Shown here: positions 28,396-45,477 of the stretch, in pieces
Layout: each line of letters starts with the position of its first letter
Position numbering within the stretch: position 1 is the first letter of the stretch
Assembly: GCF_011516645.4 (NCBI RefSeq)
Contig: NZ_CP088285.1
Span: forward strand, 9,132,501-9,196,500
Direction: 5' to 3'
DNA length: 64,000 bases
Origin: Bradyrhizobium septentrionale
GTDB taxonomy: Bacteria > Pseudomonadota > Alphaproteobacteria > Rhizobiales > Xanthobacteraceae
The notes under the pieces: model-generated
Databases searched by the model: none
The model's input: the letters and a program-made list of their open reading frames with translations, nothing else
Told to the model about the DNA's origin: nothing
Made by a program: the position numbers and the translations under genes

Positions 28396-28402
28396 GAAGA
28401 CG

Positions 28403-29419
28403 CTAGACTGTCGCGAGATAAAGGCTCGGATCGAAATATTGCGTGGCCGGCGTCGCGGCTGCGATCGGCGCCTCGGTCAGGAAGAAATCGCTGACCTGCT
28501 GCAGCCATCGGGCCACGGAGCCGTCGGCATAGAGCCGTTTCCACTCCCGCGACGAGAACATCTTCTGCGCGGCCAGCGCCTCCTCGATATCGGCGATCGT
28601 GGCTTGCGGATAATGCTTCTTCTGCAACGCGCCGGCCACCGCCTTGCCGTTGCGCAGCATGTGGTCGTTGGCGTCGGCCCAGCCGCGGATGATCCGGGCG
28701 AACACGTCGCGGTTGGCGGCAAAATAGTCCTGGCGGGAGACCCAGCCGCCGACGACGGCGGATTGCGGATAGTAGGCGGATGCGTCGACCAGCTTGACGG
28801 CGCCGGGCGCCTTTTCACGCACCGTGATATTGAACGGAACCCACAGCGCGACGGCGGGCACCTCGCCTGCGACGAACGCGTTCACCGCCGCGGACATGCT
28901 GCTGTTTGCGATTTCGACGTCGGCTGGCGCGAGCCCGTTGGCGCGCAGCGCGCGATCCAGGAAGATGTGGGCGGTCGTCATCCTGGTGGTCGCAATGCGC
29001 TTGCCGCGCAGGTCGGCGAATGTCGTGACGCCCTTGTCCGGCCGCACCCAGAGCTGAGCGGTCGCGATCTCGATATCGTTGACAAGGAACGCGGTGTAAC
29101 CGCCGCGCGGCAGCAGGCTCGAGATGACGCCGCCGGCCGAGAGCACGTCGAGCTTGCCGGCGGCCATCGCCTCTACCACCTCGAAACCGGTGTTGTACTC
29201 GACCAGATCGAAATCGATTCCTTCCCGGTCGAACGAGCCGCGGTCGAGGCCGGTGAGAATCTGGCCGTCGACGGCGACGACATGGAGATAGCCGAGCCGC
29301 AGCCGGGCTCGCTCGCGCGCGATCGCAGGCGTCCCGAGCGCGGCAGCGCCGAGCGCGGCCCTGAGGAGAAAGCGCCGCCGGCTGGTCCTGCGAGACAATA
29401 GCCTGGCCCCGACCTGCAT
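28403..29419 (-). CDS. NMT1/SsuA-type periplasmic substrate-binding protein (Tat-exported)
   Basis: A 338-aa binding protein of the thiamine-precursor/sulfonate/nitrate type. The N-terminus has a strong Tat motif, SRRRFLLRAALGAAALG, cleaved near AIA. The mature part shows LRLGYLHVVAVDGQILTGLD, the VEAMAAGKLDVLSAG strand that shapes the binding cleft, and VAGEVPAVALWVPF. No permease or ATPase gene is nearby. Its ATG follows the cyclase stop by 1 bp, so it is the last gene of the sulfatase/cyclase block and may be a sensory rather than transport protein. Confidence 0.85.
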   Translation of the reverse strand: MQVGARLLSRRTSRRRFLLRAALGAAALGTPAIARERARLRLGYLHVVAVDGQILTGLDRGSFDREGIDFDLVEYNTGFEVVEAMAAGKLDVLSAGGVISSLLPRGGYTAFLVNDIEIATAQLWVRPDKGVTTFADLRGKRIATTRMTTAHIFLDRALRANGLAPADVEIANSSMSAAVNAFVAGEVPAVALWVPFNITVREKAPGAVKLVDASAYYPQSAVVGGWVSRQDYFAANRDVFARIIRGWADANDHMLRNGKAVAGALQKKHYPQATIADIEEALAAQKMFSSREWKRLYADGSVARWLQQVSDFFLTEAPIAAATPATQYFDPSLYLATV

Positions 29420-29420
29420 C

Positions 29421-31523
29421 TCAGTGCACCGGATGATCGAGCAGCGGTTGCGGGAAGACCTCACGCAGCCGTTCGGCGTGGTATTGCGCGACGCCATCCC
29501 CGGGATATTCGGCCAGGAAGTCGGCAATGTGCAGCAGCGCCGTGGCGGGCTCGGCGCCGCGGATCGCAGCGTAGACGGCCTCCCAGCACGCGCAGAACGT
29601 CAGCTCGGATTCGCCGCGCGCGCCGCGGAGCTCGTAGACCGTGATTGCCTCGGCAAAGCCCTTCGGCCGGATCTGGTCGACGCTGCGGAACGCGAATTTG
29701 TGTTCGGCGCGCGCCCGCACCGCGGCGCTGACCAGCACCTGCGTGCCGTAATTCTTGTTGAGGCCCTCGAGCCGCGAGGCGAGATTGATGGTGGCGCCGA
29801 GCGCGGTGTAGTTCATGCGGTCGGCGGAGCCGACATTGCCGACCACAGCGTCGCCGAGATGCAGACCGAACCGTGTGGTGTAGGCCGGCCAACCCTCGCT
29901 GCGGAACGCCTTGTTCAGCTCAGCGTTGCGCTGAAGGCAGTCCAGCACGGCCTCGCAGGCGTGAATGGCGTGATCGGGATCCTGGTCGGGCGCATTCCAT
30001 AGTGCCATCACAGCGTCGCCGATGAATTTGTCGATGGTGCCATGGTGTTTCATGATCGCCTCCGACATCGCGGCGAAATAGCGCGAGGTGAAGATCATGA
30101 CCTGCGACGGATCGGCTTTCTCCGTCTTCGCGGTGAAGTCGGCGACGTCGGTGAAGAGCACCGTGACCTCGCGCCTGACGCCGCCGAGCTTCAGCGATGC
30201 GCCGGACGCCATCAGCTGGCGCACGATCGGCTGCGGAATGAAGCTGGAGAAGTTTCGCACGACGGTGCGCATCGTGAACACCGAACGGCCGAGCTCGTCG
30301 AGCTCGCCGATCGCCGATCGCATCCGCGGCCGGTCGGCGAGCTGAAAGCGCTGGATCTCGTCGGTCTGCCGCGCCAGCTCGCGCAGCGAGCGGGCGAGCA
30401 GCGAGCCGAGCCAGAATGCGAACGGCAGCATCGCGGCCACGAAGCCGAGCGCGATGGCAAACAGCGCGCGCCGCTCCGAGATGATCTGGGCAAAGAATTC
30501 GTCGAGCGGGGCGACCACCGCAAGGCGGATGTTGGCCGTCCCGGCGGTCTCGATGCGGTGAAAGGCCGCCACCAAAGTTCGCCCGTCCGCATCGGCGAAG
30601 AACTGCTGCGCGCGTCCGTCGCTGCGCCAGGACTGGATCGCCGCGGACAGGCCGGGAAGCTTCAGGGCCTCGATCCGCGGCAACGCGTCGCGGCGCTCGG
30701 CCATCAGATCGCGCATCTCGGGATGGCCGACGATGCGGTCGGCGTCGTTGAACAGAAAGGCCAGCCCGGATTTGCCGAGCTTTTGCCGGCTCAGCATCTC
30801 CTCCAGCCGGTTGAGCAGGAGGTCGGCGGCCACCACCCCGCGGCGGCCCTCCTTGAGCGGGATGCGCAACGTATAACCGGGCTCGCCGGTCGCATAGAAC
30901 ACATAGGGGCCAGTGAGCAGCGTCTTGCGGTCCTTGAAGGCCTCGACATACCAGGGCCGCTGCCGCGGATCATAGCTGTCCGGCCCCGCCACCTCGCCGA
31001 CCTGGATCAGGTTCTCCGACAGGAACAGTGTCACCGGCGCAGCCACAGCCGCTCCGGTGCGCGCAATCACCACGACGCGGTAGACCGCGTCGGCATCGAC
31101 ATTGAGCGCCGCGCGGAATTGCGGCTTGGCGCGGTCGATGACGTCCATCTCCAGGAACGAGCCGTCTTCGTAGCCGACATAGAGATTGAAGATCTGCGGA
31201 TTGTTGCGCAGCATCGAGGCCAGCAGGGCGTAGAGCCGGCTGTTGTCGGCGATGTCGGCCTCCTGGATCGCCGGCAGCCCGGCCAGGATGTCGAGATTGT
31301 CGCGCACGTTCTTGAACTGCGCGTCGATGCGGTCGGCGCCGAGCTGTCCCACCTTGTCGATGAAGGTGCTCGCGGCCATCTGCGTGATCGACGAAACCCG
31401 CCTGAAGCTGAGATAGACCAGCGTCAGACCGACCACCAGCACGGCGGCGATGAACACCGCGATGATCGAGGTACGGAAGCCGATCCGAACCGGCCTCCGG
31501 CTGGTCGCACGCACGTCACTCAT
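29421..31523 (-). CDS. Class III adenylate/guanylate cyclase with Cache sensor domain
   Basis: A 700-aa membrane cyclase. Helix 1 is at about residues 19-43; a periplasmic dCache-type sensor follows, with the hallmark DPRQRPWYVEAFKDRK; helix 2 is at about 350-375, then a HAMP-like linker. The catalytic domain (about 450-630) has metal aspartates in TVLFTDVADFT and FIGDAVMALW and the transition-state Asn/Arg in NLASRLEGLN. At the position that usually reads GDTVN it has LGATIN, so the purine-selecting Asp is absent and nucleotide preference is unsure. It lies 21 bp after the porin gene and 1 bp before the binding protein. Confidence 0.9.
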   Translation of the reverse strand: MSDVRATSRRPVRIGFRTSIIAVFIAAVLVVGLTLVYLSFRRVSSITQMAASTFIDKVGQLGADRIDAQFKNVRDNLDILAGLPAIQEADIADNSRLYALLASMLRNNPQIFNLYVGYEDGSFLEMDVIDRAKPQFRAALNVDADAVYRVVVIARTGAAVAAPVTLFLSENLIQVGEVAGPDSYDPRQRPWYVEAFKDRKTLLTGPYVFYATGEPGYTLRIPLKEGRRGVVAADLLLNRLEEMLSRQKLGKSGLAFLFNDADRIVGHPEMRDLMAERRDALPRIEALKLPGLSAAIQSWRSDGRAQQFFADADGRTLVAAFHRIETAGTANIRLAVVAPLDEFFAQIISERRALFAIALGFVAAMLPFAFWLGSLLARSLRELARQTDEIQRFQLADRPRMRSAIGELDELGRSVFTMRTVVRNFSSFIPQPIVRQLMASGASLKLGGVRREVTVLFTDVADFTAKTEKADPSQVMIFTSRYFAAMSEAIMKHHGTIDKFIGDAVMALWNAPDQDPDHAIHACEAVLDCLQRNAELNKAFRSEGWPAYTTRFGLHLGDAVVGNVGSADRMNYTALGATINLASRLEGLNKNYGTQVLVSAAVRARAEHKFAFRSVDQIRPKGFAEAITVYELRGARGESELTFCACWEAVYAAIRGAEPATALLHIADFLAEYPGDGVAQYHAERLREVFPQPLLDHPVH

Positions 31524-31544
31524 CGGGCTTGTTGTCCGCCTCCC

Positions 31545-32573
31545 CTAATACTTCCGAACGATCGGCTTCGCCGGCGCCGTCTCGGGCGGCGCTGGCGAGA
31601 TCGCGAAGGTGACCCATGTGCTCCAGCCGCTCGGCCGGTTCTCCGTCGCGAGATCCTTGTAGCCCTTGAGGTTCAAGTAGCCTTGGTAGCCTTCGGACAG
31701 GTTCGGAAACAGGAATCCAACTTGCGGGCCGATGCCGACCGTCATGCCTCTGAAGCCTCCGAGGACCGCGCCTGGACCACTGTCGTCGGTCAGTTGCTGG
31801 AAGTAGTAGCCGACAACGCCGATCTGGAACGTCTTGGTGAGGAATTTCGAGGCCGCCCAATCGATATGGAAGTCGATGCCGTTCTGGTACTGCAGATCCC
31901 GGTTAGGGGCGCTGTAGGTCAGGCCGGCGACGACGGAGAACTCGTTGCCGGCCTTGGGGTCGAAATAGGTGTAGCCGGCGCCGGCATCGATGGCGGCGAA
32001 GCCGAGACTGAGGTTGGCAAGGCGATTCGCATCGTAGGTGCCGCTCGGGATGTTGCCGGTGACGTAGACCATCTCGTTGTGGACGCCCTGGTTCCATTTG
32101 AGCGTCCCCTGATAGAACACGTCGGCGAAGGTGGTGCGGTTGTCGGTCCGGACGCCCGAGACGGTGTTGCCGAGCGGGCCCGTCAGCGTGGCGCCGACGC
32201 CGACGCCAACGTTGCCCGGCGCGCCGAGGATCGTGAGCGCCGCCTGGCCACCGAGCACCGGCAACGCCGAGGTGTAGGTGATGCCCTGGACCAGGGCGTC
32301 GGCATGATCGGTGAGGCCGACGGCCACCGCGCCACGGCCGCCGCCGGGAAGCACGAAGTTGGCCCCTCGGCCGCCGCTCGACTGCAGATGCAGGTAGATC
32401 GTGGCATAGGACCATCCCGGCACCGCTGGCGCGGCGGCAAGACTTCCGAACGCGCCGGGAAGCCAGAAGCTCAATCCACCGGCATCGGCCAACGCTGTGC
32501 GCGGCATCGTCGCCAGCGCCAGTGTGCCAACAATGCCGAGTATGGCGCACCTGTGATGTTTGACCATCGTCAT
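31545..32573 (-). CDS. SphA / meta-pathway-type outer-membrane porin
   Basis: A 342-aa secreted beta-barrel protein. Signal peptide about 1-30 (ILGIVGTLALATMPRTALA), then the family opening GGLSFWLPGAFGSLAAAPAV. Alternating aromatic/glycine strands follow (TIYLHLQSSGG, GAGYTYFDPKAGNEFSVVAG, GIGPQVGFLF). Proteins of this type sit in aromatic-degradation and sphingosine-uptake loci as outer-membrane channels for hydrophobic compounds. The C-terminus is not the classic aromatic end, and runs on to a Pro-rich tail. It sits between the DUF1254 genes (49 bp) and the cyclase (21 bp). Confidence 0.82.
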   Translation of the reverse strand: MTMVKHHRCAILGIVGTLALATMPRTALADAGGLSFWLPGAFGSLAAAPAVPGWSYATIYLHLQSSGGRGANFVLPGGGRGAVAVGLTDHADALVQGITYTSALPVLGGQAALTILGAPGNVGVGVGATLTGPLGNTVSGVRTDNRTTFADVFYQGTLKWNQGVHNEMVYVTGNIPSGTYDANRLANLSLGFAAIDAGAGYTYFDPKAGNEFSVVAGLTYSAPNRDLQYQNGIDFHIDWAASKFLTKTFQIGVVGYYFQQLTDDSGPGAVLGGFRGMTVGIGPQVGFLFPNLSEGYQGYLNLKGYKDLATENRPSGWSTWVTFAISPAPPETAPAKPIVRKY

Positions 32574-32622
32574 CCCGACATCCCCACTTCGTTCACAACA
32601 GCGTAGCGGATTCGCGTGCGCC

Positions 32623-33642
32623 TTAGTTCACCGCCTGCGCCTCCGGGAATTTCCACTTCCCATTCAGGATCTCCGGGCGCGGCCGATAGAGCCGGACCGT
32701 GTAGTTCCATCCCTTCATGATCGGCAGGCAGTTCGGCAGCTTGCCGTCGCAGCCGCCGAACTGGATCGCGATCGAACCGTCGGCGGATTTCTTCGCCGTG
32801 ATGTTGTTCAGCGTATACGCATCGTAGGGATTCTTCTCGAAGTATCCCTTCGCGTTGTAGACGCTGATCGACCAGAACGCGTCGACGGGAACGTCCCTGA
32901 CGGCCAACTTGTAGACCGTGGTGCCGTCGTTCCTGGTGGGCGTGATGCTGAGATAGGACGCGTCCTTGTCGGGATTCCCGCCCCAGCCGGCAGCGGTGGC
33001 GATCAAGTGCCTGACAGGGTCGACCTGCCCCTTGGGCCCGAACGCATGGGCGAATCCGCCGGTATAGTCATTCAACGCCAGAAGCGCGTCGCGAATGTTC
33101 TTCTGGCTGGCCTGGTCCCAGTTCGGAAGATCGAGTTTGCCCGTACCTTTCTGGTCAACCTTGATGGCATCCTGCAAGGCATGCACTTGCGCGAGGTCCT
33201 TCGGATCGTTCGGATCGACCAGCGTACGAATCCCAGCCACCACGTAGCGCGTGCCGACATTCTCTCGCGTCAATTTGCGTTTTCCGGCGCCGTAATACAC
33301 CGCGGGCACGTAGTGATCTTCGTTGATCACCTGCAGCGACATGAAGCGTTTGCCGGGATCCGGCATCGTGACCGTCACCGGACCTGCGTCGAGGTCGAAC
33401 ACGCCGGATGTATAGAGCGTGTCGCGATTGAGCCGGATGACGGACTGCTTGTCGATGCTGGCCGGTTCGCGGCGATGACTGAGCTTGCCGAGGCCGGCGT
33501 CCTTGACGAGGTTGTTCATGTAGAGATCGGACTCGGCGCGGGCGAAATTATCAACTGTCACCGGGACCGGCGCTTGTGCGAATGCAGACGAAACCGCAAG
33601 GCAGGAACCGGCAACCATCGTAAGCAAGAACTTGACCTTCAT
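32623..33642 (-). CDS. Exported DUF1254/DUF1214 protein (short form)
   Basis: A 339-aa exported protein of unknown activity. Signal peptide MKVKFLLTMVAGSCLAVSS, cleaved at AFA-Q. The DUF1254 part includes IRLNRDTLYTSGVFDLDAG and FMSLQVINEDHYVP. The C-terminal DUF1214 part has AFWSISVYNAKGYFEKN, the family's signature Trp-Ser-hydrophobic-Tyr block, and NYTVRLYRPRPEILNGKW. Shorter than the two paralogues in the same operon. The ATG at 33642 begins the signal peptide; a start 11 codons earlier is unlikely. Periplasmic. Confidence 0.85.
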   Translation of the reverse strand: MKVKFLLTMVAGSCLAVSSAFAQAPVPVTVDNFARAESDLYMNNLVKDAGLGKLSHRREPASIDKQSVIRLNRDTLYTSGVFDLDAGPVTVTMPDPGKRFMSLQVINEDHYVPAVYYGAGKRKLTRENVGTRYVVAGIRTLVDPNDPKDLAQVHALQDAIKVDQKGTGKLDLPNWDQASQKNIRDALLALNDYTGGFAHAFGPKGQVDPVRHLIATAAGWGGNPDKDASYLSITPTRNDGTTVYKLAVRDVPVDAFWSISVYNAKGYFEKNPYDAYTLNNITAKKSADGSIAIQFGGCDGKLPNCLPIMKGWNYTVRLYRPRPEILNGKWKFPEAQAVN

Positions 33643-33671
33643 GGTAATGCTCCGCAGCTGATTGTGGCGCG

Positions 33672-35099
33672 TCATCGCGTTGACCCGCCAACCGTGGCGG
33701 CGAGGCGCTCGACGTCGGGCAATGTCCAGCCGTGATCGAACAGCGCCTTCGTTGGCGCATAGGCACGGAACATCAGCTCGAACTTGCGCGCCGGATCGGT
33801 CGGCACCCAGTTGGCCTCCTTGCCCGCCGGCGCGGCCGGGGCGAAATAGACATCGACCGAACCGTCGGCGTTCTTCTGCATGTCGGCGATCTGGGACGAG
33901 CGGCTGGCGCGTGACATATTCTTGATCAGCGCGTGGGTCTGCCTATCGTACGCCGTGACGGACCAGTACTGCTCGACCGGCGCATTGGGCGGCACCGTCA
34001 GGCGGTAGGTCCCGCCTCCTTCGAACGGTCGGCCATCCTTATCCCTAATCGAGATCAGGTAGAACTGGCCGGCCCCAAGGCGCTTGATCCCTATGTAGGC
34101 ATAGCTGTAGGCCATACCGCGGTTATCGATCGGATACACGTCTGGATCGGCGTAAGCTTCCTGAGCCGCCTTGACGAGGTCGGCCGGAGCCGGGAGTGTC
34201 CAGCGGCTCGTCTCGGAGAAGAACGGCGGAAGTCCGGCGTCGTATTTCGCCTCGAGCAGAGCACCAGCCTCGCGCGCGGCCGACGTCAGCAAGGCCTTGA
34301 TGGCGTCGCTTGGACTGAACGGCTTGCCCTTTTCGATGCCGACCGTCTTGAGCGGATCGATCATCGCCCGGTCAGGTTGCAGCCACGGCTCGTTCTGCAC
34401 GATCCGATCGAGATGCTCGAAGAAGCTCGAATCATAGCGGATCGTCGAGTCGTAGCCGATGTCCTTGACGTCGGTGAACACGGTCGGCGGAGGGTTGTCC
34501 GCCTGCGCCAACGGATAGATCTTCAGCTGCTTGCCGTATGCGATCGACCTGACGACGTCGTCGGCGCCATGGCTCCGAAGGTTCGAGCGCAGCAACATGT
34601 AACCACCGAACGTGTCGGATTGCAGCGCGATGTAGCCGTCGGGCGCCTTCCCCGTGTATCCCGGCGGCAGGATCAGATATTTTCCACCTTTGCCCTTGTC
34701 CGCGCCAAGCAGCCCGGCGTCTTCCAGCGGCATTTGCCAGACGGTGACGATATTGCCGTTGAACGAGCCATTGGCATCACCCGATGGCAGGTCGAGCACG
34801 ACCGGACCATCCTTGGTGTTGAAGAACACCATGAAATAGAGGGCATCGGGATTGGGCGTGAGTGTTTGATTGTGCCAATCCAGCGGACGCCCCCAATAGA
34901 TGGCTTGTCCGACCTTCCCGGCAGTCTTGCTTAGCATCTCCTGAAGCATGAGATCGTAGTTCACTGCAGGCATCGCCCAGATCACAGCTTCAACTGCGCG
35001 GCGATGAACGTTGCGTGCAGCGATATCGTCGGGCGTTTGGGCTTGCGCGGCCACGATCGAGAGCACGAGCGCAACTCCTGCCGTGAGCAAACGTCTCAT
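33672..35099 (-). CDS. Exported DUF1254/DUF1214 protein (long form 1)
   Basis: A 475-aa exported protein. Signal peptide MRRLLTAGVALVLSIVAAQA. DUF1254 region about 45-170: MPAVNYDLMLQEML, QTLTPNPDALYFMVFFNTKD, PVVLDLPSG. DUF1214 region about 365-460, with PVEQYWSVTAYDRQTHALIK and VDVYFAPAAPAGKEANWVPT. The fold recurs in secreted proteins of unknown role, often in sets as here. No catalytic residue can be assigned. It is 13 bp after the DUF3302-HlyD remnant and 29 bp before the short form. Confidence 0.87.
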   Translation of the reverse strand: MRRLLTAGVALVLSIVAAQAQTPDDIAARNVHRRAVEAVIWAMPAVNYDLMLQEMLSKTAGKVGQAIYWGRPLDWHNQTLTPNPDALYFMVFFNTKDGPVVLDLPSGDANGSFNGNIVTVWQMPLEDAGLLGADKGKGGKYLILPPGYTGKAPDGYIALQSDTFGGYMLLRSNLRSHGADDVVRSIAYGKQLKIYPLAQADNPPPTVFTDVKDIGYDSTIRYDSSFFEHLDRIVQNEPWLQPDRAMIDPLKTVGIEKGKPFSPSDAIKALLTSAAREAGALLEAKYDAGLPPFFSETSRWTLPAPADLVKAAQEAYADPDVYPIDNRGMAYSYAYIGIKRLGAGQFYLISIRDKDGRPFEGGGTYRLTVPPNAPVEQYWSVTAYDRQTHALIKNMSRASRSSQIADMQKNADGSVDVYFAPAAPAGKEANWVPTDPARKFELMFRAYAPTKALFDHGWTLPDVERLAATVGGSTR

Positions 35100-35112
35100 G
35101 ATGATCTCCCGC

Positions 35113-35400
35113 TCAAAACGGATTCACGTAGTTGACGATCGCGACTTGGCGCAGGATCACGCGGCGCACGACGTGGGTCGGCTTCAAATGGTCGGTGTAG
35201 ATTGCGGCCGTGCCGGCCGATCCGGCCGGCAAGCGATTGGCGAACGCGGCATCGTCGAGCTTGACGCGCACGACGAAGGGAACGGCCTCGATTGCTTTCG
35301 CGATATGCCCGGGCAGCCAGCCGGCGATGCAGAACACGCCGATCGCGCTCGCGACCAGGATAAGCAGCACGATCCAGGCGAAGATGTCGTAGCCGCTCAT
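35113..35400 (-). pseudogene. In-frame chimera of a DUF3302 protein N-terminus and an HlyD/MFP C-terminus
   Basis: This 95-aa frame joins two pieces normally encoded by neighbouring genes. Residues 1-36 (MSGYDIFAWIVLLILVASAI, then GWLPGHIAKA) look like the start of a DUF3302 inner-membrane protein. Residues 37-95 (VVRVKLDDAAFANRLPAGSA, TAAIYTDHLKP, RVILRQVAIVNYVNPF) look like the last strand and C-terminus of a HlyD-type membrane-fusion protein. The parsimonious reading is an internal deletion fusing the two. The frame is still open and spaced 9 and 13 bp from its neighbours, so a short membrane protein may still be made, but it cannot work as an efflux adaptor. Confidence 0.7.
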
Positions 35401-35409
35401 GGTTCGATC

Positions 35410-36732
35410 CTATCGCGTCTTCACCAGAGGCGGCGGGAAGTAAGTGCCGTTCGCCACACCGCCGATCGGCCCGTAGAAGCGGAATGTCAGGCGATAACCC
35501 GAGCCCTTCGGCGTCGGCAGCCAGTTGCCATCGGGTGCGTTGGCAGGCTTCTCGGCGGCGAAATACAGCGTGAGCGAGCCGTCGCTGGCGTATTCCGGCT
35601 TGGTCTCGCGGTTCAGCAGGTAGCGCCCTCTCGGATTCGGCAGCACGCGGTAATGCACGGGATCGACTGCGATCACCGACCAGAAGTATTTCGCAAGGGA
35701 CTGCGGCAACTCGCCCTTCGGAAAGGTCATGGTATAGCTGCTGTCGCCGGAGAGCGTTGCGCCGGTGCCGTCCGTGCCGGCGCGGTAATAGAGGACTTCA
35801 GGCATCACATTGGCCCAGATGCCGCCAAAGGTGACCAGCGTACGAGCGATGAAGTCGATGTTGTAATTGCCGACCACCGCGGGGCGCGCCCAGCCGTTGT
35901 AGATCACGCCGTGCCCGATGGTGTTGCCGAACTTTGCATATTCAGGATAGGTCTGCTCGCGCACGACCTTCGCGACTCTCTCGCGCTCGGCCTGGTCCTT
36001 GATCGCCTTGCCGATCGCCCGCGCATCCGCGGCCTGTTTCTCCAGCCCCGGATTGAGGTCGGGTTCGCTGTCGAGCGCGATATCGGCATAGTCGAAGAGT
36101 TCGACACCGGGCAGCCGCTCGAGGTCGAAGATCGGCGTCTTCGGAATGTCGGGCAGTTTCGGTGAACCGGTGGCCCGGAACGCAAAGGCCTGCTGGAGGC
36201 GGACCGCATCGTCCCAATTGTCTCCCAGTTCGACCCGCAGCAGCACGCGCGCATATTTGACCGGCAGATCAACACGTCGGACATCGGCAGGAAGTGTCAC
36301 ATTGGCGCCCCGCAGACAGTACGCGAACTCGCCATCCGGCTTGTTTGGGAAGAGCCGCTCATTGATGTTGGCGAGCGTCTCGTCCCATCCGTTCAGGAAT
36401 TGCACCGTATAGTAGCGATCGACGATCTTCGGCACGGTGACGATCGTGCAACTCGTCTCGTCCACCGCGACCCAGGCTTCCGAATAGGCGACGTCGAGAT
36501 TCGGATTGGGCCAGTCCACCGCGCCGGGCTTGCGGTGCCGCAGTTCGTTCCATTTGAAGCCTTCCTGAAAATCGAGCTGTTGCTGCCGCAACACGAGGAT
36601 GCGCGTGAACAGGTAAATCCAGGAATCGCTGATCTCCTGATCCGATGGCGTTCCGGCGCGGTTCGGCGCCTGAGCGACGGCGACGCCGGCCAGGCAGGAC
36701 ATTGCAAGCGCGACAACCAGTGCTGTCTTCAT
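35410..36732 (-). CDS. Exported DUF1254/DUF1214 protein (long form 2)
   Basis: A 440-aa exported protein. Signal peptide MKTALVVALAMSCLAGVAVA. DUF1254 part: KPGAVDWPNPNLDVAYSEAW, PKIVDRYYTVQFLNGWDETL. Central helical region with RERVAKVVREQTYPEYAKFG. DUF1214 part: LAKYFWSVIAVDPVHYRVLP, SLTLYFAAEKPANAPDGNWL. Sequence is quite unlike the other two paralogues, so the set is old or was recruited separately. Ten bp separates it from the HAD gene upstream. Role unknown. Confidence 0.86.
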   Translation of the reverse strand: MKTALVVALAMSCLAGVAVAQAPNRAGTPSDQEISDSWIYLFTRILVLRQQQLDFQEGFKWNELRHRKPGAVDWPNPNLDVAYSEAWVAVDETSCTIVTVPKIVDRYYTVQFLNGWDETLANINERLFPNKPDGEFAYCLRGANVTLPADVRRVDLPVKYARVLLRVELGDNWDDAVRLQQAFAFRATGSPKLPDIPKTPIFDLERLPGVELFDYADIALDSEPDLNPGLEKQAADARAIGKAIKDQAERERVAKVVREQTYPEYAKFGNTIGHGVIYNGWARPAVVGNYNIDFIARTLVTFGGIWANVMPEVLYYRAGTDGTGATLSGDSSYTMTFPKGELPQSLAKYFWSVIAVDPVHYRVLPNPRGRYLLNRETKPEYASDGSLTLYFAAEKPANAPDGNWLPTPKGSGYRLTFRFYGPIGGVANGTYFPPPLVKTR

Positions 36733-36742
36733 CTGAACATCC

Positions 36743-37774
36743 TCAAGGGCTGTCCGGAAACATGGTCTTCCAGTCCTGCTTCATGTCGACCACGGTCCAG
36801 CCACCGGCCGCGGCCGCATCGAGCGTCTTGTCGAGCTTGCCGATCTTCGATTGCCGGTCGTAGGCGTATTCGCGCTCGGCATCGGTGTGGTGCACGATGC
36901 CGGCGAAACGCGCGCCCTGCCCCGCCGCGGTCCATTGCAGCATTTGCAGGTCGCCGTCCGAATTGCCGAACGCAAAGATCGGACGGCGGCCGATGAAGCG
37001 GTTGATACCGACCGGCTTGCCCGGGCCGTCATCGATGAACTCGACCTTGGCTTCCTTCATCAGCACGGGCTTGCCGTCAGCACCGATCTGGAATTTCACC
37101 ACGCCCGACGAGCCGACCACCTGCTCCGGCGGAATGCCGTAGACCCGCTCCGTCCACGGCCGCATGAACTCGATGCCGCCGCCTGAGACGATAAAGGTCT
37201 TGAAGCCGTTGGCCCTGAGGTAGGCGAGCAGCTCCAGCATCGGCTGGTAGACCAGGCTGTCATAGGGACGTTTGAAGCGCGGATGCCTTGCGGTCGCGAG
37301 CCAGTCGCGGACAGACTGCGCGAACACATTCGTGGTCATGCCGGCATGCGTGACCGCCAGGATCTGCATCACCCCCTTCTCTCCAGTGGCGGCAAGCGCC
37401 TTGGTATCCTTCTCCAGAAGGGCCTTGAAGGGTTGCCGCGTCTTCCAGTCCGGATGCTCCGGCGCCATTGCCTTGACGCGGTCGAACGCGAAGGCGAGCT
37501 GGAAATAGATTGGCTGCTCGGTCCACAGCGTGCCGTCATTGTCGACGGTGGCGATGCGCTCGGCCGGCGGCACGAAATCCGCTCCGCCTTGCGTCGTCAC
37601 GCGCGCGACGAAACCGGTGATCGACTTCTTCGCCGCGCCGTCGTTCCAGGACGGCAGCGGGTCGGATTGGGCGCGCGCGCCGACAACGCTGCACAACACG
37701 ACAACCGCGACGAGCGCCGCAAGGCAGGCTCGTCGCTTCAGTCTTGTGCATTTGTCCATCACCGCAATCCGCAA
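36743..37774 (-). CDS. Secreted HAD-superfamily (phosphoserine-phosphatase-like) hydrolase
   Basis: A 343-aa HAD-fold protein with an N-terminal export signal (RRACLAALVAVVVLCSVVGA). Motif I is ATVDNDGTLW with the nucleophile Asp, motif II TFIVSGGG, and motif III/IV AFGNSDGDLQML, so all catalytic residues are in place and phosphatase activity in the periplasm is plausible. The start is probably TTG at 37774, with AGGGG 8 bp upstream; an ATG 5 codons in also fits. It stands 36 bp after the first sulfatase gene and 10 bp before a DUF1254 gene. Confidence 0.85.
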   Translation of the reverse strand: MRIAVMDKCTRLKRRACLAALVAVVVLCSVVGARAQSDPLPSWNDGAAKKSITGFVARVTTQGGADFVPPAERIATVDNDGTLWTEQPIYFQLAFAFDRVKAMAPEHPDWKTRQPFKALLEKDTKALAATGEKGVMQILAVTHAGMTTNVFAQSVRDWLATARHPRFKRPYDSLVYQPMLELLAYLRANGFKTFIVSGGGIEFMRPWTERVYGIPPEQVVGSSGVVKFQIGADGKPVLMKEAKVEFIDDGPGKPVGINRFIGRRPIFAFGNSDGDLQMLQWTAAGQGARFAGIVHHTDAEREYAYDRQSKIGKLDKTLDAAAAGGWTVVDMKQDWKTMFPDSP

Positions 37775-37810
37775 CGGATTTCCCCTACCACCTCTCGTTG
37801 AGCTTCATGC

Positions 37811-39523
37811 CTATTGGGTCACCTCGAAGCTCTTCTGCATCTTCTCGACCAACTGGTCGATGCTGAAGCTCGATGGCCGCTGGCTCGGAGGATAATCCTT
37901 GAAAGTCGCGAGAAAGTCTCCGACGACCGCCGAGGACGCCAGGAATGCGCCGGCAGCGTCCGACATGAACCAGTCGTAGTAAGTGTTAGAGGTGACGTCC
38001 GCACGTTCGTACGGATCGGAACGCAGATTGAAAAATTTCGGCACCCGCAGCTTCGTGAAGGGCTCCGCCCAGATCCGCATGGTGCCGTTGACGCGCTGCT
38101 CTTCGAACACCGCTTTCCAGTTCTCATAACGCATCGCCACGACATCGCCGTCGTCGTTGAAGTAGATGAATTCCTTGCGGGCGCCGCGATCCTGCTGGCC
38201 GGTGAGATATGGAAGCTGGTTGTAACCGTCGAGGTGAACCTTGAATGTCTTGCCACCGACGTTATAGCCGTTGAGCAGCTTCTGCTTGATCTCAGTGTCG
38301 CCGGCCGCGGCCATGAGTGTGGGGAACCAGTCGAGTCCGCTGACCATTTCGTTCGAGACCGAACCCGGCTGGATTCGTCCCGGCCAGCGGATCATGCAGG
38401 GCACGCGGAACGCGCCTTCCCAGTTGGTGTTCTTCTCGCTGCGGAACGGCGTCGTGCCCGCGTCCGGCCAGGAGTTCTGATGCGGGCCGTTGTCGGTCGT
38501 GTAGAGAACGATCGTATCATTGGCGACGCCGAGATCGTCCAGGGCCTTGAGGATCGTGCCGATCGTCGCATCGTGCTCGATCATCCCGTCGGCATATTCA
38601 GTCCGTGAAGTCAGGCCCGGCTTGTCGCGATGCTCCGCCCGCACATGGGTACGGAAGTGCATGCGGGTGGAGTTGAACCAGCAGAAGAACGGCGTGTTCG
38701 CCTGAACCTGACGCCGCATGAAATCGACCGCCGCGGCCGACGTCTCATCGTCGATGGTTTCCATGCGCTTCTTGGAGAGCGGCCCGGTGTCCTCGATGGT
38801 CTGCTTGCCAACCCTGCCCCAGCGTGGCTGCTCGGTCGGGTCGTCGCGCTCGGATGCCTTGCACCGCAGTACGCCGCGTGGTCCGAACTTGTCGAAGAAG
38901 CCGGGGTCTTTCGGGTAGAACCAGTTCTCGGGGTCTTCTTCGGCGTTAAGGTGATAGAGGTTGCCGTAGAACTCATCGAAGCCGTGCACTGTCGGCAAAT
39001 ATTCGTTGCGGTCCCCAAGGTGGTTCTTGCCGAACTGGCCGGTGGCGTAGCCCAGCGGCTTGAGCACTTGGGCGATCGTGACGTCCCTGGCCTGCAGGCC
39101 AACCGTCGCACCGGGGACGCCAACCTTCGACAGGCCGGTTCGCAACGTGCATTGGCCGGTGATGAAGGATGATCGCCCTGCCGTGCAGCTTTGCTCGGCA
39201 TAATAGTCGGTAAACATCATGCCTTCTTTGGCAACGCGATCGATATTCGGCGTGCGATAGCCCATCAGGCCGAATGAATAGGCGCTCAGGTTGGTCTGGC
39301 CGATATCATCGCCGAAGATGATGAGAATATTCGGCTTGCGCCCCGAGGCCGCCGCAGCGGCCGGACTTGCAGCCGGCGCCGGGGCAGCCTTCTGCGCCTG
39401 TGCCAGCGCGTCCGATGTCAACGCCGCTGCTGCGACCAGCGAGGATGTACCGAGTAGCAAATTTCGGCGATTGATCGCCTGTTCCGCTTCGGTCTGGCTC
39501 CTGTTCCTGGTTTCATTGCTCAT
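37811..39523 (-). CDS. Arylsulfatase-type sulfatase 1 (Tat-exported)
   Basis: Type I sulfatase (570 aa) hydrolysing sulfate esters in the periplasm. A Tat-like leader INRRNLLLGTSSLVAAAALT is followed by an Ala/Pro linker. Catalytic core: metal aspartates in IIFGDDIGQTN (about 72-73), the formylglycine motif CTAGRSSF with Cys113 (C-x-A-x-R form), GKNHLGD and TTDNGPHQN. Length is usual for the family. The FGE needed to convert Cys113 is encoded two genes upstream. The natural sulfate ester is unknown. Confidence 0.93.
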   Translation of the reverse strand: MSNETRNRSQTEAEQAINRRNLLLGTSSLVAAAALTSDALAQAQKAAPAPAASPAAAAASGRKPNILIIFGDDIGQTNLSAYSFGLMGYRTPNIDRVAKEGMMFTDYYAEQSCTAGRSSFITGQCTLRTGLSKVGVPGATVGLQARDVTIAQVLKPLGYATGQFGKNHLGDRNEYLPTVHGFDEFYGNLYHLNAEEDPENWFYPKDPGFFDKFGPRGVLRCKASERDDPTEQPRWGRVGKQTIEDTGPLSKKRMETIDDETSAAAVDFMRRQVQANTPFFCWFNSTRMHFRTHVRAEHRDKPGLTSRTEYADGMIEHDATIGTILKALDDLGVANDTIVLYTTDNGPHQNSWPDAGTTPFRSEKNTNWEGAFRVPCMIRWPGRIQPGSVSNEMVSGLDWFPTLMAAAGDTEIKQKLLNGYNVGGKTFKVHLDGYNQLPYLTGQQDRGARKEFIYFNDDGDVVAMRYENWKAVFEEQRVNGTMRIWAEPFTKLRVPKFFNLRSDPYERADVTSNTYYDWFMSDAAGAFLASSAVVGDFLATFKDYPPSQRPSSFSIDQLVEKMQKSFEVTQ

Positions 39524-39609
39524 TCGACACTCCTTACTTTTCAGAAGGCCGTTGCGACGGTCGAGAGACGGCAGGCCGGCTCACCGAAGGATGAGCCGGG
39601 TGCACAGAG

Positions 39610-41412
39610 TTAGCGATTTTGCAGTTGCTGCTGGATGATCCGGTTCAGTCCGGCGCGGACCTTGTCGATATCCATTCCTTCGGTTAGCGCCTTCTTCTGC
39701 TTGATCCCGTCCATCATGCCTTCCAGGATGTTGGCGGGATTGAAGCTCGGCGGGAAGGCGCGCGGCGGAAACTCCTTGAACGTCGCGACGAACTGGAACA
39801 CCTCATCCATCATGCCGTAGGCGCTGCCGACATGATTCAGATTCCAGTCCCAAAAGGTGTTGGAGGTGATGTCGGCGCGCTCGAAGGGGTCCTGCATCAG
39901 GTTGAATATCTTCTGCAGGCGGAGCGTGGTGAAGGGTTCGGCCCACAGCCCCATCGTCCCTTCCTTGCGCTGCTCGGAGAAGACGTATTTGTAGTCGCCC
40001 TGCCGGAAGCACACCAACAGGCCGTCATCGTCCGAGTAAAAAAACTTGTCGCGCGCGCTCTTGGTGCCGTTGTTGTTTGCGGCGGTCCCGCTGACGTTCC
40101 GGAGGAACGCCGACTGGTCGTAGCCGTCGAGATGGACCTTGTAGTTGATGCCGTTCGCGGTGTAGCCGGATTTAAGCTTGTTGACGATGTCGGGTTCGCC
40201 GGCAATCGCGCACAGCGTTGGGATCCAGTCGTTGTGGCTCATGAGTTCGTTGCTGACCGTACCGGGCTTGATCACACCGGGCCAGCGGACAAGGCAAGGC
40301 ACGCGGAAAGCGCCCTCCCAATTGGTGTTCTTCTCGGAACGGAACCAGGTCATCGCACCGTCGGGCCAGGTGTTCATGTGGGGCCCGTTGTCGCTCGAAT
40401 AGACCACAATGGTGTCGTTCGCGATTCCCAGATCGTCCAGCGCCTTGAGCAGTGAGCCGACGGTGTCGTCGTGCTCCATCATGCCGTCGATGTACTCGCT
40501 GTCGCCGTGGGTGTAGCGGCCCCGATGGTCGGCGCGCACGTGCGTGCGCAGATGCATGCGCGTCGCATTGAACCAGCAGAAGAACGGCTTGCCGGCCGCC
40601 TGCTGCCGCTTGATGAAATCGATCGCCGCCGCGGACGTTTCGTCATCGACCGTCTCCATGCGCTTCTTGGTCAGGGCGCCGGTATCCTCGATGGTCTGCT
40701 TTCCGATCTTGCCGAACCGCGGATCGACCGTGGGATCGTCACGATCCGTCGCCTTGCAGCGCAGCACGCCGCGCGGGCCGAACTTGGCGCGGTAGGCCGG
40801 ATCCTTGGGATAGTCGGGCAGCTCCGGCTCTTCCTCGGCATTGAGATGGTAGAGGTTGCCGAAGAACTCGTCGAAGCCGTTCACGGTCGGCAGCGATTCG
40901 TTGCGGTCGCCGACGTGATTCTTGCCGAACTGACCGGTGGTATAGCCGAGATTCTTGAGCAGACCGCCGACCGACGGATCGAGCTGGCTCATCCCCATTG
41001 GCGCACCGGGAAAGCCGACCTTGGTCAGGCCGGAACGAATACCATGCTGGCCGGTGAGAAACGCTGCGCGGCCGGCCGTGCAAGACTGCTCGCCGTAATA
41101 ATGCTGCATCTTGAGGCCTTCGCGCGCAATGCGGTCGATGCTTGGCGTCTCGTATCCCATCAAGCCATTCGAATAGGCGCTGATGTTCGCGATGCCGATG
41201 TCGTCACCCCAGATCACCAGGATATTCGGCTTGCGGCCCGAGGTCGCCGCAGGCGACGGACTTGCAGCCGACGCAGGCGCTGCCTTCTGCGCCTGCGCGA
41301 ACGCATCGGACGTCAATGTCGCCGCGGCCACCAGGGTGGATGTGCCCAGCAAGAGATTGCGACGGTCGATAGCCTTGTCGGCCTGTTTCTTGTTCTCGGC
41401 GTCGTTACTCAT
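39610..41412 (-). CDS. Arylsulfatase-type sulfatase 2 (Tat-exported)
   Basis: Close paralogue of the neighbouring sulfatase (600 aa). Leader AIDRRNLLLGTSTLVAAATL. Catalytic motifs: VIWGDDIGIAN, CTAGRAAF with Cys111 as the formylglycine precursor, GKNHVGD, YSSDNGPHMN. It is longer by a C-terminal region (MMDEVFQFVATFKEFPPRAF and beyond). The two sulfatases share many identical blocks but differ around the substrate loops, as expected after a tandem duplication with divergence. The ATG at 41412 (MSNDAENKKQ) matches the paralogue's start; a start 7 codons up is unlikely. 27 bp after the FGE gene. Confidence 0.93.
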   Translation of the reverse strand: MSNDAENKKQADKAIDRRNLLLGTSTLVAAATLTSDAFAQAQKAAPASAASPSPAATSGRKPNILVIWGDDIGIANISAYSNGLMGYETPSIDRIAREGLKMQHYYGEQSCTAGRAAFLTGQHGIRSGLTKVGFPGAPMGMSQLDPSVGGLLKNLGYTTGQFGKNHVGDRNESLPTVNGFDEFFGNLYHLNAEEEPELPDYPKDPAYRAKFGPRGVLRCKATDRDDPTVDPRFGKIGKQTIEDTGALTKKRMETVDDETSAAAIDFIKRQQAAGKPFFCWFNATRMHLRTHVRADHRGRYTHGDSEYIDGMMEHDDTVGSLLKALDDLGIANDTIVVYSSDNGPHMNTWPDGAMTWFRSEKNTNWEGAFRVPCLVRWPGVIKPGTVSNELMSHNDWIPTLCAIAGEPDIVNKLKSGYTANGINYKVHLDGYDQSAFLRNVSGTAANNNGTKSARDKFFYSDDDGLLVCFRQGDYKYVFSEQRKEGTMGLWAEPFTTLRLQKIFNLMQDPFERADITSNTFWDWNLNHVGSAYGMMDEVFQFVATFKEFPPRAFPPSFNPANILEGMMDGIKQKKALTEGMDIDKVRAGLNRIIQQQLQNR

Positions 41413-41439
41413 AAGAAACTCCTTACATTGCAAAGGCCT

Positions 41440-42441
41440 TCACTTCGTCGGGTGAGAAACGGCTGGCGACGACCGCACCACGCAGCGGAATCCGACATGG
41501 CTGGTCGACGTATCGACCGGCTCGGCATGGCGCGCGGCCGGGCGATAGCGGCGGCAATAATTCGGCGCACAGAGATGCGAGCCGCCTTTCAGCACCTTGC
41601 GCGGAATCCTGATCGCCGGCTGACAGGTGTCGTAGCTCGCCTCCTCGCGGCCGCCGCGCGGATTCTGCGGGATGCAGCAGGGTTTTGCGGCGCCGGCCTC
41701 ATGGCGGGCCGACCACCAGTCGGCGGTCCACTCCCAGACATTGCCGATCATGTCGTGGACGCCGTAGCCGTTCGGCGGGAACGCGGTGACGGGCGAGGTT
41801 CGGTCAAAACCGTCCTCGCAGAGATTCTGCAGCGGGAAATTGCCCTGCCAGGTGTTGGCCATGTGCTTGCCGCCGGGCGTCAGGGCATTGCCCCAGGCAT
41901 ATTCCTCATCCTCGAGCCCGCCGCGCGCCGCGAACTCCCACTCCGCTTCGGTCGCAAGCTCCTTGCCGGCCCATTTGGCGTAGGCGAGCGCATCGGCATA
42001 GGCGACGTGGACGACCGGATGGCTGCCGAGCACATTGATGTTGCTGCGCGGGCCATAGGGGCGGCGCCAGTTTGCGCCCCGCAGGAAGGTCCACCATTGG
42101 CTCCAGTCGCGCAGGGTGTGGACGCGGCGCGGCGGAGAAAACACCAGCGAGCCGGCGTACAGCATGTGCGGCAGCGCGCCGGGATATTGCGCGGGATCGG
42201 GCGGCCGCTCGGCGAACGTGATGTGGCCGGTCTCCCGCACGAAGTCGCGGAATTGGGCGTTGGTCACCGGCGTGCGGTCGATCCAGAAGCCATCGACCGA
42301 CGCCCGATGCGACGGCGCTTCCTCGGGATAATGCTGGTCCGATCCCATGCGGAACGTGCCGCCGGGAATCCAGACCATGTCGTCGGTCTGCATGCGGTCG
42401 TCCGGCTCTGCTTCAGCGGAAGCGATCTCGGCCCGGGACAT
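41440..42441 (-). CDS. Formylglycine-generating enzyme (sulfatase-modifying factor)
   Basis: A 333-aa SUMF1-fold oxidase converting the active-site Cys of sulfatases to formylglycine. Family opening MVWIPGGTFRMGSD, middle PVTNAQFRDFVRETGH, WEFAARGG and NVWEWTADWW. Crucially the copper-binding cysteines of true FGEs are present as Cys291 and Cys296 in GSHLCAPNYCRRYRPAAR, followed by GFRCV. No signal peptide, so it acts in the cytoplasm before Tat export. First recognised enzyme of the block, directly upstream of both its likely substrates. Confidence 0.93.
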   Translation of the reverse strand: MSRAEIASAEAEPDDRMQTDDMVWIPGGTFRMGSDQHYPEEAPSHRASVDGFWIDRTPVTNAQFRDFVRETGHITFAERPPDPAQYPGALPHMLYAGSLVFSPPRRVHTLRDWSQWWTFLRGANWRRPYGPRSNINVLGSHPVVHVAYADALAYAKWAGKELATEAEWEFAARGGLEDEEYAWGNALTPGGKHMANTWQGNFPLQNLCEDGFDRTSPVTAFPPNGYGVHDMIGNVWEWTADWWSARHEAGAAKPCCIPQNPRGGREEASYDTCQPAIRIPRKVLKGGSHLCAPNYCRRYRPAARHAEPVDTSTSHVGFRCVVRSSPAVSHPTK

Positions 42442-42462
42442 GGCGATACACCTGTTCGCGCA

Positions 42463-42609
42463 TTACCGCGGGCAACAGTCCCAAAAACCCTGTGTTCTCG
42501 ACGGGTCGGTGATTTCGTTGAGTGCTACGCGGAAGATCTTGCTGAAGATCGCAGGCTTGAAGATCGCAGGATTGGCTTCTCGGTGATCGAACGTCGTGCT
42601 CGATTGCAT
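42463..42609 (-). CDS. Putative 48-aa peptide directly upstream of the FGE gene
   Basis: A short open frame starting ATG with GGAAGG about 8 bp upstream, ending 21 bp before the FGE start. The peptide begins MQSSTTFDHREANPAIFKPA, and ends SRTQGFWDCCPR. It resembles no family known to me. The ribosome-binding site and position favour translation, as leader or product. The C-terminal CCPR is close to, but not, the C-x-P-x-R motif recognised by FGEs. Confidence 0.38.
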   Translation of the reverse strand: MQSSTTFDHREANPAIFKPAIFSKIFRVALNEITDPSRTQGFWDCCPR

Positions 42610-43548
42610 TGTCGCGCCCTTCCATTTTTTGATGCTGCACTTTTTCGGCAGCGTTGATTGCGTCAGGCCTTCTTCCCTTTCTCTCCTCGTCGCCATCTAC
42701 GCGAACGCTCGCGTGCGCAACCGCTCTCGCGGCGCGTGATCCGTCCCGCCGGACGTCGTCACGAGCTGTTTCGCTTTGAGATCAAACGATAGCGCAACGC
42801 GTTATGCGTGGCATGTGCACTTTGTGCCAATCTCAACCCCAAGGCGTGCAGCCTTAACGAACGATGTCCCAATTCCATCAATCCGATGCCGCCGCCAGGA
42901 AAACTTTCTCGAAAAACAGGCGAAAACTGCACGTTTGCGAGAGCTGCCCTACGGTCTCGCCATGCGTATTCGACCGACCGAGGCACGATGTCGCAGGGCC
43001 GGTGTTGCACTGGCCGCAATCACGCGGATTCGTCGCAGACGCCAACTAACGTCGCAGCGATGACGGCCAACGAGCCAGTCTCCCGCCGCTTCGGCGATCT
43101 CGGAGCTGGAACAATGTGGCGCTTCGCAAGCAAGCGAAGTCGCTGGGTCGGCATCTGCGCTTCAGTGCCCCCGATCTGCTGAGCAATCCCGTCGTCGCGT
43201 CGCCCCAAGCCATGGGCCTGAGGGGCTTTTTTTCGCGCGCGCTCAGCGGCTCCGCCGATGTCGTCACTGTGCGAACATGGCAAACGCGACGATGACAACT
43301 GGGCTTAAGCCCAGGATCACAGCGCAGAATCGAAAGAATATGTCATCCAACATGACACAACCCCACGTAGACGAGAAATCTACGCCGGGAAAACTCGGCA
43401 GTTCCAGTGCAGTTTGTGCCAGTTGCTACCCACCGAAATATAATACCCGCGGGCAGCGCAGTACGAGCCGGCGTAGCCCGAAATCGCGATCACTGAGTTG
43501 TCCGACGTGGCAGGCTCCAGCGGCTGCCGAAGGACTGGCAGTGAATTT
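42610..43548. other. 939-bp region without a convincing gene
   Basis: Several open frames occur on both strands but none has a good ribosome-binding site together with a plausible protein. It must hold the promoter for the FGE/sulfatase block (minus strand). The stretch 42750-42900 is less GC-rich than its surroundings. A likely terminator on the plus strand lies at 43202-43233 with no gene in front of it, so a non-coding transcript is possible. Confidence 0.5.
43202..43233 (+). terminator. Possible Rho-independent terminator without an assigned gene
   Basis: Stem GCCCC with GGGGC, with an interrupted inner pairing (GCC/GGC), followed by seven T residues. The T-run is unusual in this GC-rich sequence. 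No coding gene on the plus strand precedes it. Confidence 0.5.
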
Positions 43549-45345: not shown

Positions 45346-45477
45346 GATGCAGAAACTCGGGTGCTTGGCGCCGCGAGATGAACGGACTTATCCGAACGTC
45401 GCAAGCGCACATCACACTTCGCAGGCTTTCCGCGGCGAGTCCGCGCTGCTAGGCTTAGGCGCCTTGGGAGGAAATGC

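What the first reader, a model, noticed from the sequence alone, without database searches (positions are those of the whole stretch)
28403..42609. A single dense 14-kb block couples sulfatase activation to an uncharacterised exported protein set and a signalling cyclase
Seen: eleven minus-strand genes plus a possible leader ORF, with gaps of 21, 27, 86, 36, 10, 9, 13, 29, 49, 21 and 1 bp. Order: 48-aa ORF, FGE, two sulfatases, secreted HAD hydrolase, DUF1254, DUF3302-HlyD remnant, DUF1254, DUF1254, SphA-type porin, Cache-cyclase, Tat-exported binding protein. Known: FGE (SUMF1 family) activates sulfatases; SphA-type porins admit hydrophobic compounds. Inferred: one transcription unit that takes in a sulfated or aromatic substrate, removes sulfate in the periplasm, modifies it with HAD and DUF1254 proteins, and reports the outcome through cyclic nucleotide. 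I know of no described system of this composition.
Basis: partly seen in the sequence, partly recalled or inferred. Interest (0 to 1): 0.8.

Follow-up and report, generated by a model that had tools for sequence, protein, structure and literature searches.

The report
Sulfatase operon with swappable middle genes
In Bradyrhizobium soil bacteria, a gene block that probably strips sulfate from compounds outside the cell keeps the same first gene (a sulfatase activator) and the same signalling enzyme near its end, while the exported proteins in between differ from strain to strain and the block sits at different chromosomal places.

Summary
The block is real: ten intact genes and two relicts on one strand, gaps 1-86 bp. 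It is not peculiar to this strain. An orthologue of its Cache-cyclase occurs in 30 of 98 same-genus genomes. In 28 of the 30 an FGE gene lies upstream on the same contig and strand, and in one more the cyclase's contig starts inside an FGE gene. FGE and cyclase are fixed ends. In 33 complete systems 47 bp to 20.6 kb lies between them, mostly from a recurring set: sulfatases, HAD, DUF3302-HlyD, DUF1254s, porin, MoxR-Bat. The cargo is partly exchangeable: DUF1254c identity hardly tracks the cyclase (rho 0.14; FGE 0.76) and the window's porin is a divergent allele. All 14 compared relatives without the unit beside this aldolase gene rejoin the far flank, and some carry the unit elsewhere. The 48-aa 'leader' is a deletion relict of an exported-protein gene; the DUF3302-HlyD ORF is a 0.9-kb deletion fusion. 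Best reading: FGE-headed, probably Tat-exported sulfatase operon with cyclase output; substrate unknown. A new variant of a known kind.

The parts
42442..43012 (-). 5' non-coding region of the unit (probable promoter region)
   Evidence: DNA-conserved with five relatives: up to 588 bp at 80% with G069 and 561 bp at 83% with G004, shorter blocks with G076, G010, G049; no Rfam match
42463..42609 (-). 48-aa ORF, deletion relict of a small probably exported protein gene (cluster C11), not a leader peptide
   Evidence: C-terminal match to eight C11 proteins; shared internal deletion in G000, G004, G069, undeleted in G076, G010, G049
41440..42441 (-). FGE (formylglycine-generating enzyme), fixed head gene
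   Evidence: PF03781 275.5 bits; best solved relatives are human FGE structures, E 3e-74; GGSHLCAPNYC Cys pair
39610..41412 (-). sulfatase A, CTAGR active-site motif, RR-type signal by eye
   Evidence: PF00884 157.9 bits; motif
37811..39523 (-). sulfatase B, CTAGR active-site motif, RR-type signal by eye
   Evidence: PF00884 165.1 bits; PDB relatives arylsulfatases; motif
36743..37774 (-). HAD hydrolase, probably exported (start 37756 or 37774)
   Evidence: PF12710 57.2 bits; solved relative 4ovy E 3.5e-125; DNDGT and GNSDGD motifs
35410..36732 (-). DUF1254/DUF1214 protein a
35113..35400 (-). DUF3302-HlyD deletion fusion (relict)
   Evidence: junction and 893-896 bp loss against five relatives; DUF3302 below cut-off
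33672..35099 (-). DUF1254/DUF1214 protein b; solved relative VPA0735
32623..33642 (-). DUF1254/DUF1214 protein c (short type; start 33642 to 33675)
   Evidence: identity almost uncorrelated with cyclase
31545..32573 (-). PF13557 outer-membrane protein (porin), divergent allele
   Evidence: 142.8 bits; 68-70% to four relatives that are 88-94% alike
29421..31523 (-). dCache + class III cyclase, fixed tail gene
   Evidence: PF02743 and PF00211 above cut-offs; D459, K499, D503, N580, R584 invariant in ten orthologues; linkage to FGE
28403..29419 (-). periplasmic binding protein (NMT1 / SsuA-like), RR-type signal by eye
   Evidence: PF09084 59.4 bits; SsuA family 115.6 bits, under its cut-off 163.5; taurine/sulfonate/nitrate binding proteins in PDB
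28396..45367 (.). stretch absent beside the aldolase gene in relatives (about 17 kb; includes the chromate-transporter genes and other DNA upstream of 43012)
   Evidence: 14 of 14 compared loci without the unit rejoin window sequence at or beyond 45368

Best explanation
A modular, relocating operon for periplasmic cleavage of sulfate esters, coupled to a membrane cyclase. FGE (no signal peptide by eye) would convert the Cys of the CTAGR sulfatases to formylglycine in the cytoplasm; the sulfatases would then be exported folded by Tat. In the periplasm they would desulfate a substrate admitted by the porin, helped by strain-specific exported proteins (HAD, DUF1254s, HlyD/DUF3302, MoxR-Bat). The Cache-cyclase, and in most systems a binding protein next to it, would sense substrate or product and raise cytoplasmic cAMP. 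Head and tail stay fixed while the middle is gained, lost and exchanged. Shown by sequence comparison: gene families, conserved order and linkage, cargo variation, empty site, deletion relicts. Inferred: single transcript, Tat export, formylglycine formation, sulfate-ester substrate, cAMP as product, binding protein as co-sensor.
For: Family assignments. Cyclase in 30 of 98 genus genomes, FGE upstream on the same contig and strand in 28 of 30, in G089 the cyclase contig starts inside FGE. 33 complete systems with the same ends and 3 of 205 middle ORFs on the other strand. 38 of 38 sulfatase ORFs CTAGR, 33 of 33 FGE Cys pairs. Loose twin-arginine pattern in 29 of 38 sulfatases against 0 of 70 in DUF1254 clusters and HlyD. 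Catalytic residues of the cyclase invariant in ten orthologues (roles recalled). In two further FGE loci a different dCache cyclase lies near the tail. Divergent AraC-type gene before FGE in 24 of 33.
Against: Eight of 33 systems have no intact sulfatase and nine no binding protein. Many FGE-sulfatase operons have no cyclase, and G330's second copy and Microvirga soli have a cyclase relative without FGE nearby. G049 has a second FGE locus with only cyclase fragments. The motif is CTAGR, not the textbook CxPxR. The twin-arginine pattern is met by only 9 of 27 binding proteins. No transcription, activity or nucleotide data.
Confidence: 0.5

Rival explanations
1. The sulfatases and DUF1254 proteins act on the cell's own envelope (sulfated surface glycans or lipids) rather than on nutrients; porin and cargo alleles change under phage or host pressure, and the cyclase reports envelope state.
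For: All predicted cargo is exported; the porin is the fastest-swapped large protein among close relatives; DUF3302-HlyD and MoxR-Bat are envelope-type genes.
Against: No gene for making or attaching sulfated glycans was recognised in the middle of the mapped systems (not every middle ORF was scanned). The binding protein resembles nutrient binding proteins.
Confidence: 0.22
2. The FGE-cyclase(-binding protein) pair is the conserved function and the exported cargo is a changing set of passengers; FGE works mainly in trans on sulfatase-family enzymes elsewhere in the genome.
For: Eight of 33 systems have FGE and cyclase with no intact sulfatase between. In the six of these eight that I checked, other Cys-type sulfatase-family enzymes are encoded elsewhere.
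Against: 25 of 33 systems keep one or two intact sulfatases; truncated sulfatase or porin pieces in G022, G063, G083 and inoc1_29 mark the naked state as recent loss in at least those four.
Confidence: 0.2
3. Accidental neighbours: two or three unrelated transcription units that happen to lie together in this strain.
For: Terminator-like matches occur on the minus strand in the region.
Against: Those matches are at shuffle level; the same ends and order recur in 33 complete systems at several chromosomal places.
Confidence: 0.03

Closest known systems
FGE (SUMF1 family) plus type I sulfatase operons of bacteria
   Same: Aerobic formylglycine-generating enzyme beside Cys-type sulfatases
   Different: Head of a long unit with variable exported cargo and a cyclase tail; sulfatase motif CTAGR
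Receptors stimulated by ligand-loaded binding proteins (reviewed in PMC9602780, passages seen; LuxP/LuxQ recalled)
   Same: Membrane receptor with a Cache domain next to a periplasmic binding protein gene
   Different: Output is a class III cyclase; binding protein absent from 9 of 33 systems; no interaction tested
DUF1254/DUF1214 protein VPA0735 (PDB 2p3y, 3vb9)
   Same: Sequence relative of DUF1254 b, E 4e-54
   Different: Here one to four divergent copies in 20 of 33 systems; function unknown in both as far as I know
DUF3302-HlyD pair (YiaW-YiaV of E. coli, recalled)
   Same: Adjacent overlapping DUF3302 and HlyD genes, both present in 16 of 33 complete systems
   Different: Embedded in a sulfatase operon; reduced to a 95-aa fusion in this window
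MoxR-Bat clusters
   Same: MoxR AAA, DUF58, DUF4381, VWA, VWA/TPR, BatD order (G010 representatives)
   Different: In 5 of 33 complete systems, in those five between two sulfatases; not in this window

Membership tests
FGE / SUMF1 | FGE-sulfatase domain above cut-off | tested here: met
   275.5 vs 23.3 bits; human FGE structures E 3e-74
FGE / SUMF1 | catalytic Cys pair (roles recalled) | tested here: met
   GGSHLCAPN[YH]C in 33 of 33 FGEs, read by eye from the listing
Type I sulfatase (FGly) | Sulfatase domain above cut-off | tested here: met
   165.1 and 157.9 vs 25 bits
Type I sulfatase (FGly) | Cys in C-x-P-x-R (textbook motif, recalled) | tested here: inconclusive
   Cys present but Ala for Pro: CTAGR in 38 of 38 ORFs; whether this FGE modifies CTAGR is untested
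Class III adenylyl cyclase | catalytic domain with metal, base and transition-state residues (roles recalled) | tested here: met
   PF00211 67.3 vs 21.9 bits; D459, K499, D503, N580, R584 invariant in ten aligned orthologues. A regex check passed 34 of 39; G002 is a split gene, and G083, G330, G330b and Microvirga differ in one or two of the patterns
Class III adenylyl cyclase | makes cAMP rather than cGMP | not testable with these tools
   needs an assay
SsuA aliphatic sulfonate binding protein | TIGR01728 above curated cut-off | tested here: not met
   115.6 vs 163.5 bits
Binding protein-receptor sensing pair | loaded binding protein docks on the receptor's sensor domain | not testable with these tools
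   adjacency only, 24 of 33 systems
Operon (single transcription unit) | conserved co-directional order in other genomes | tested here: met
   33 systems, 3 of 205 middle ORFs opposite
Operon (single transcription unit) | one transcript | not testable with these tools
   no RNA data; consensus scan uninformative
Integrative mobile element | discrete insertion with an empty site in relatives | tested here: met
   14 of 14 compared loci without the unit
Integrative mobile element | own recombinase or tRNA target | tested here: not met
   no recombinase among the unit proteins scanned; no tRNA in the window; flanking genes were not searched for recombinases, except that the genes at 27619-28395 and 43549-44600 were scanned

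The most novel reading that the evidence does not exclude
A 'fixed ends, swappable middle' locus class: a sulfatase-maturation enzyme at the head and a Cache adenylyl cyclase, with a nearby binding protein as ligand adaptor, at the tail frame a cassette of exported proteins that is exchanged between strains and moves as a unit between chromosomal sites. The cyclase would serve as a general reporter for whatever product the current cargo makes, so that substrate range evolves by cargo exchange while the signalling output stays constant.
Probability: 0.3. Interest if true: 0.72.

Novelty: new variant of a known kind. Interest (0 to 1): 0.5.

Why it matters
Bradyrhizobium is a dominant soil and legume-root genus, and most soil sulfur is organic (both recalled). 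A recurrent locus that links sulfatase maturation, exported proteins of unknown function (DUF1254, DUF3302) and a membrane cyclase gives these orphan families a genetic context in which they can be tested, and a natural series (from FGE-cyclase alone to over 20 kb of cargo) for asking what the cyclase senses. I found no description of it in the held PMC library: no paper holds DUF1254 and sulfatase; none holds formylglycine-generating enzyme, adenylate cyclase, operon and Bradyrhizobium; the listings showed no title on it (I saw listings and starts of abstracts, plus passages of PMC9602780 and PMC6710368). Most subscription papers are not in that library.

Tried and rejected
Leader peptide: rejected, deletion relict. 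Regulatory RNA: no Rfam match at E<=0.1 in 28000-44000. Remnant of the AraC gene in the window: none convincing (best tblastn E 0.057, far from the block). FGE without any client in systems lacking an intact sulfatase: rejected for the six of eight checked (G055, G061, G054, G031, G083, G022), each of which has Cys-type sulfatase-family genes elsewhere. SsuA proper: below the curated cut-off. Structure prediction and fold search were not used; they would not have decided docking or substrate.

Counting notes. The 33 complete systems are 28 of the 30 cyclase genomes of the genus sample plus G468, G421, G330, Bradyrhizobium sp. 1 inoc1_29 and Oc8. Left out as incomplete: G028, G089, B. tropiciagri (L088), B. 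stylosanthis (L090), G330's second copy and Microvirga soli. Genes were called by my own codon-usage script and clustered by a 35% identity threshold, so short or frameshifted genes may be miscounted; G002's cyclase is split. For the AraC and binding-protein counts, G001 and G024 begin 207 bp before FGE at a contig end and G468's locus holds only 1.7 kb before FGE, so AraC could not be seen fully there. The FGE pattern was off by one and matched none; I read the 33 listed C-termini by eye. One search uses only systems whose gene passed a length filter (numbers there). In the tree, G028 was labelled as cyclase-linked although its link is unresolved. One search used 17 of the 30 aldolase loci fetched (93 genomes matched). 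Of 43 FGE rows I fetched 20, seven of them cut short by contig ends.
Full report
Check of the observation. Family assignments hold. Promoter-like and terminator-like matches are near shuffle level.

Two parts change meaning. The 48-aa ORF is the stump of a small protein gene: 13 of the last 14 residues compared equal those of the G011 member of cluster C11, and a DNA alignment of six systems shows the gene undeleted in G076, G010 and G049 and with the same internal deletion in the window, G004 and G069. The 95-aa ORF is a DUF3302 N-terminus fused to a HlyD C-terminus by loss of 893-896 bp, the junction at a short CGAA identity, relative to five relatives.

Is it a unit? I searched FGE and the cyclase in the same 98 same-genus genomes. 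FGE (E<=1e-90) is in 60 of 98, often in several copies. The cyclase (E<=1e-160) is in 30 of 98, one match each (G002's is split, and G049 has an additional locus with cyclase fragments only). In 28 of the 30 an FGE lies upstream on the same contig and strand, 104 bp to 20.6 kb away by match coordinates. In G089 the cyclase contig begins inside an FGE gene. In G028 an FGE sits 1.5 kb from a contig end and the cyclase is on another contig. At order level the cyclase is in 6 of 397 genomes, 2 of 141 genera. In the protein database 580 relatives reach E<=1e-100 (only 7,996 candidates were scored); most of the organism names among the best 120 are Bradyrhizobium.

Anatomy of 33 complete systems (maps). 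From the end of FGE to the cyclase is 47 to 20,603 bp. Intact sulfatases: two in 8 systems, one in 17, none in 8. HAD is in 17, DUF3302 and HlyD in 16, at least one DUF1254 in 20 (up to four), a porin in 17 and an inverted one in 2 more. MoxR-DUF58-(DUF4381)-VWA-VWA/TPR-BatD is in 5, in each between two sulfatases (names from G010 representatives). Of 205 middle ORFs, 3 are on the opposite strand. A divergent AraC-type gene precedes FGE in 24 of 33 and is absent in the window; the binding protein follows the cyclase in 24 of 33. All 38 sulfatase ORFs carry CTAGR and all 33 FGEs the Cys pair.

Ends versus middle. Over all pairs of systems, identity was compared with that of the cyclase: FGE rho 0.76, binding protein 0.60, HlyD 0.58, porin 0.45, HAD 0.40, DUF1254c 0.14. 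The window's FGE is 92-96% and its cyclase 89-94% identical to its nearest systems, but its porin is 68-70% identical to four porins that are 88-94% identical to each other, and G010's porin is a third type (52-57%). That is the signature of allele replacement, though gene-specific rates were not modelled. HlyD and the binding protein track the cyclase almost alike, so 'ends' and 'middle' grade into each other. Relicts of lost cargo (the two above, truncated sulfatases in G022 and G063, pieces in inoc1_29 and G083) show loss as well.

Relocation. The aldolase gene that abuts the unit is found in 93 of 98 genus genomes. I compared the DNA after it in 17 loci. Three (window, G069, G004) have the unit there; the stretch between aldolase and far flank is about 17.0, 11.4 and 14.6 kb. 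The other 14 have window sequence from 45368 or beyond after the aldolase gene instead; in G044, G049, G042, G076 and G010 it starts within 192 bp. G049, G076 and G010 carry the orthologous unit on another contig or over 1 Mb away. Other systems end beside several different neighbours. No recombinase was seen among the unit's proteins and no tRNA in the window, so I do not call it an integrative element.

Wider family. On an FGE tree of 61 sequences the cyclase label (34 rows) needs 9 changes against 20.3 in shuffles: clustered, with repeated loss or gain. FGE relatives (E<=1e-120) occur in 37 of 149 family genomes, 18 of 47 genera. In 20 such loci from other genera the same cargo families recur, mostly without the cyclase; 2 of 20 have it, one with the binding protein (seven of the 20 are short). 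In G056 and G013 a different dCache cyclase (31-33% identity) follows FGE-sulfatase-HAD cargo, on the same and on the opposite strand.

Mechanism. FGE without a signal peptide (by eye), sulfatases with a loose twin-arginine pattern in 29 of 38 and a Cys-type active site fit cytoplasmic maturation followed by Tat export. HAD, DUF1254 and porin look Sec-exported (by eye). The cyclase has a dCache domain and conserved catalytic residues. The binding protein is weakly related to nitrate, taurine and sulfonate binding proteins, has no paralogue above 28% identity among matches in its genome, and no transporter gene follows it in the window. Binding of loaded binding proteins to receptor sensor domains is an established mechanism (PMC9602780, passages), so a relay from binding protein to Cache domain to cAMP is plausible but untested. 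In G069 a full-length DUF1254 is fused to the short type (G047 has one of similar length), which hints that DUF1254 partners act together. The solved relative VPA0735 has no known function as far as I know.

Against my reading. Eight of 33 systems lack an intact sulfatase and nine the binding protein; many FGE operons lack the cyclase; G330's second copy and Microvirga soli have a cyclase relative with no FGE in reach. In the six systems checked, FGE could serve enzymes encoded elsewhere. An envelope role is open. Nothing here measures transcription, formylglycine, sulfatase activity or cyclic nucleotide.

Verdict. I file it as a new variant of the FGE-sulfatase operon.

Noticed in passing
window 43549-44600: Two chromate-transporter domain genes (PF02417) lie between the unit and the far flank; no such match upstream of FGE in the maps of G069 or G004, which share the site.
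   Followed up: partly
window 54598-55029 (+), G000:C2:9187098-9187529: A partial FGE-sulfatase domain match (92.9 bits) in a 444-aa open frame in the same window; not identified further.
   Followed up: no
G000:C2:7853136-7858945 (locus L032): A second FGE (72%) in the same genome with sulfatase, HAD and a further sulfatase downstream, no orthologous cyclase mapped beside it.
   Followed up: partly
L016/L079 (G010), L023 (G001), L020 (G024), L026 (G087), L030 (G081), L024 (G080), L247 (G545): MoxR-Bat type six-gene blocks sit inside FGE-sulfatase operons, also in cyclase-less ones.
   Followed up: partly
L012 (G069), L041 (G047): DUF1254 ORFs of 790 and 788 aa; in G069 a full-length DUF1254 fused to the short type.
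   Followed up: partly
   Followed up: no
G054 and G031 (L065, L049), G055 and G061 (L035, L070): FGE followed within 47-498 bp by the cyclase with nothing called between, natural minimal versions of the unit.
   Followed up: partly
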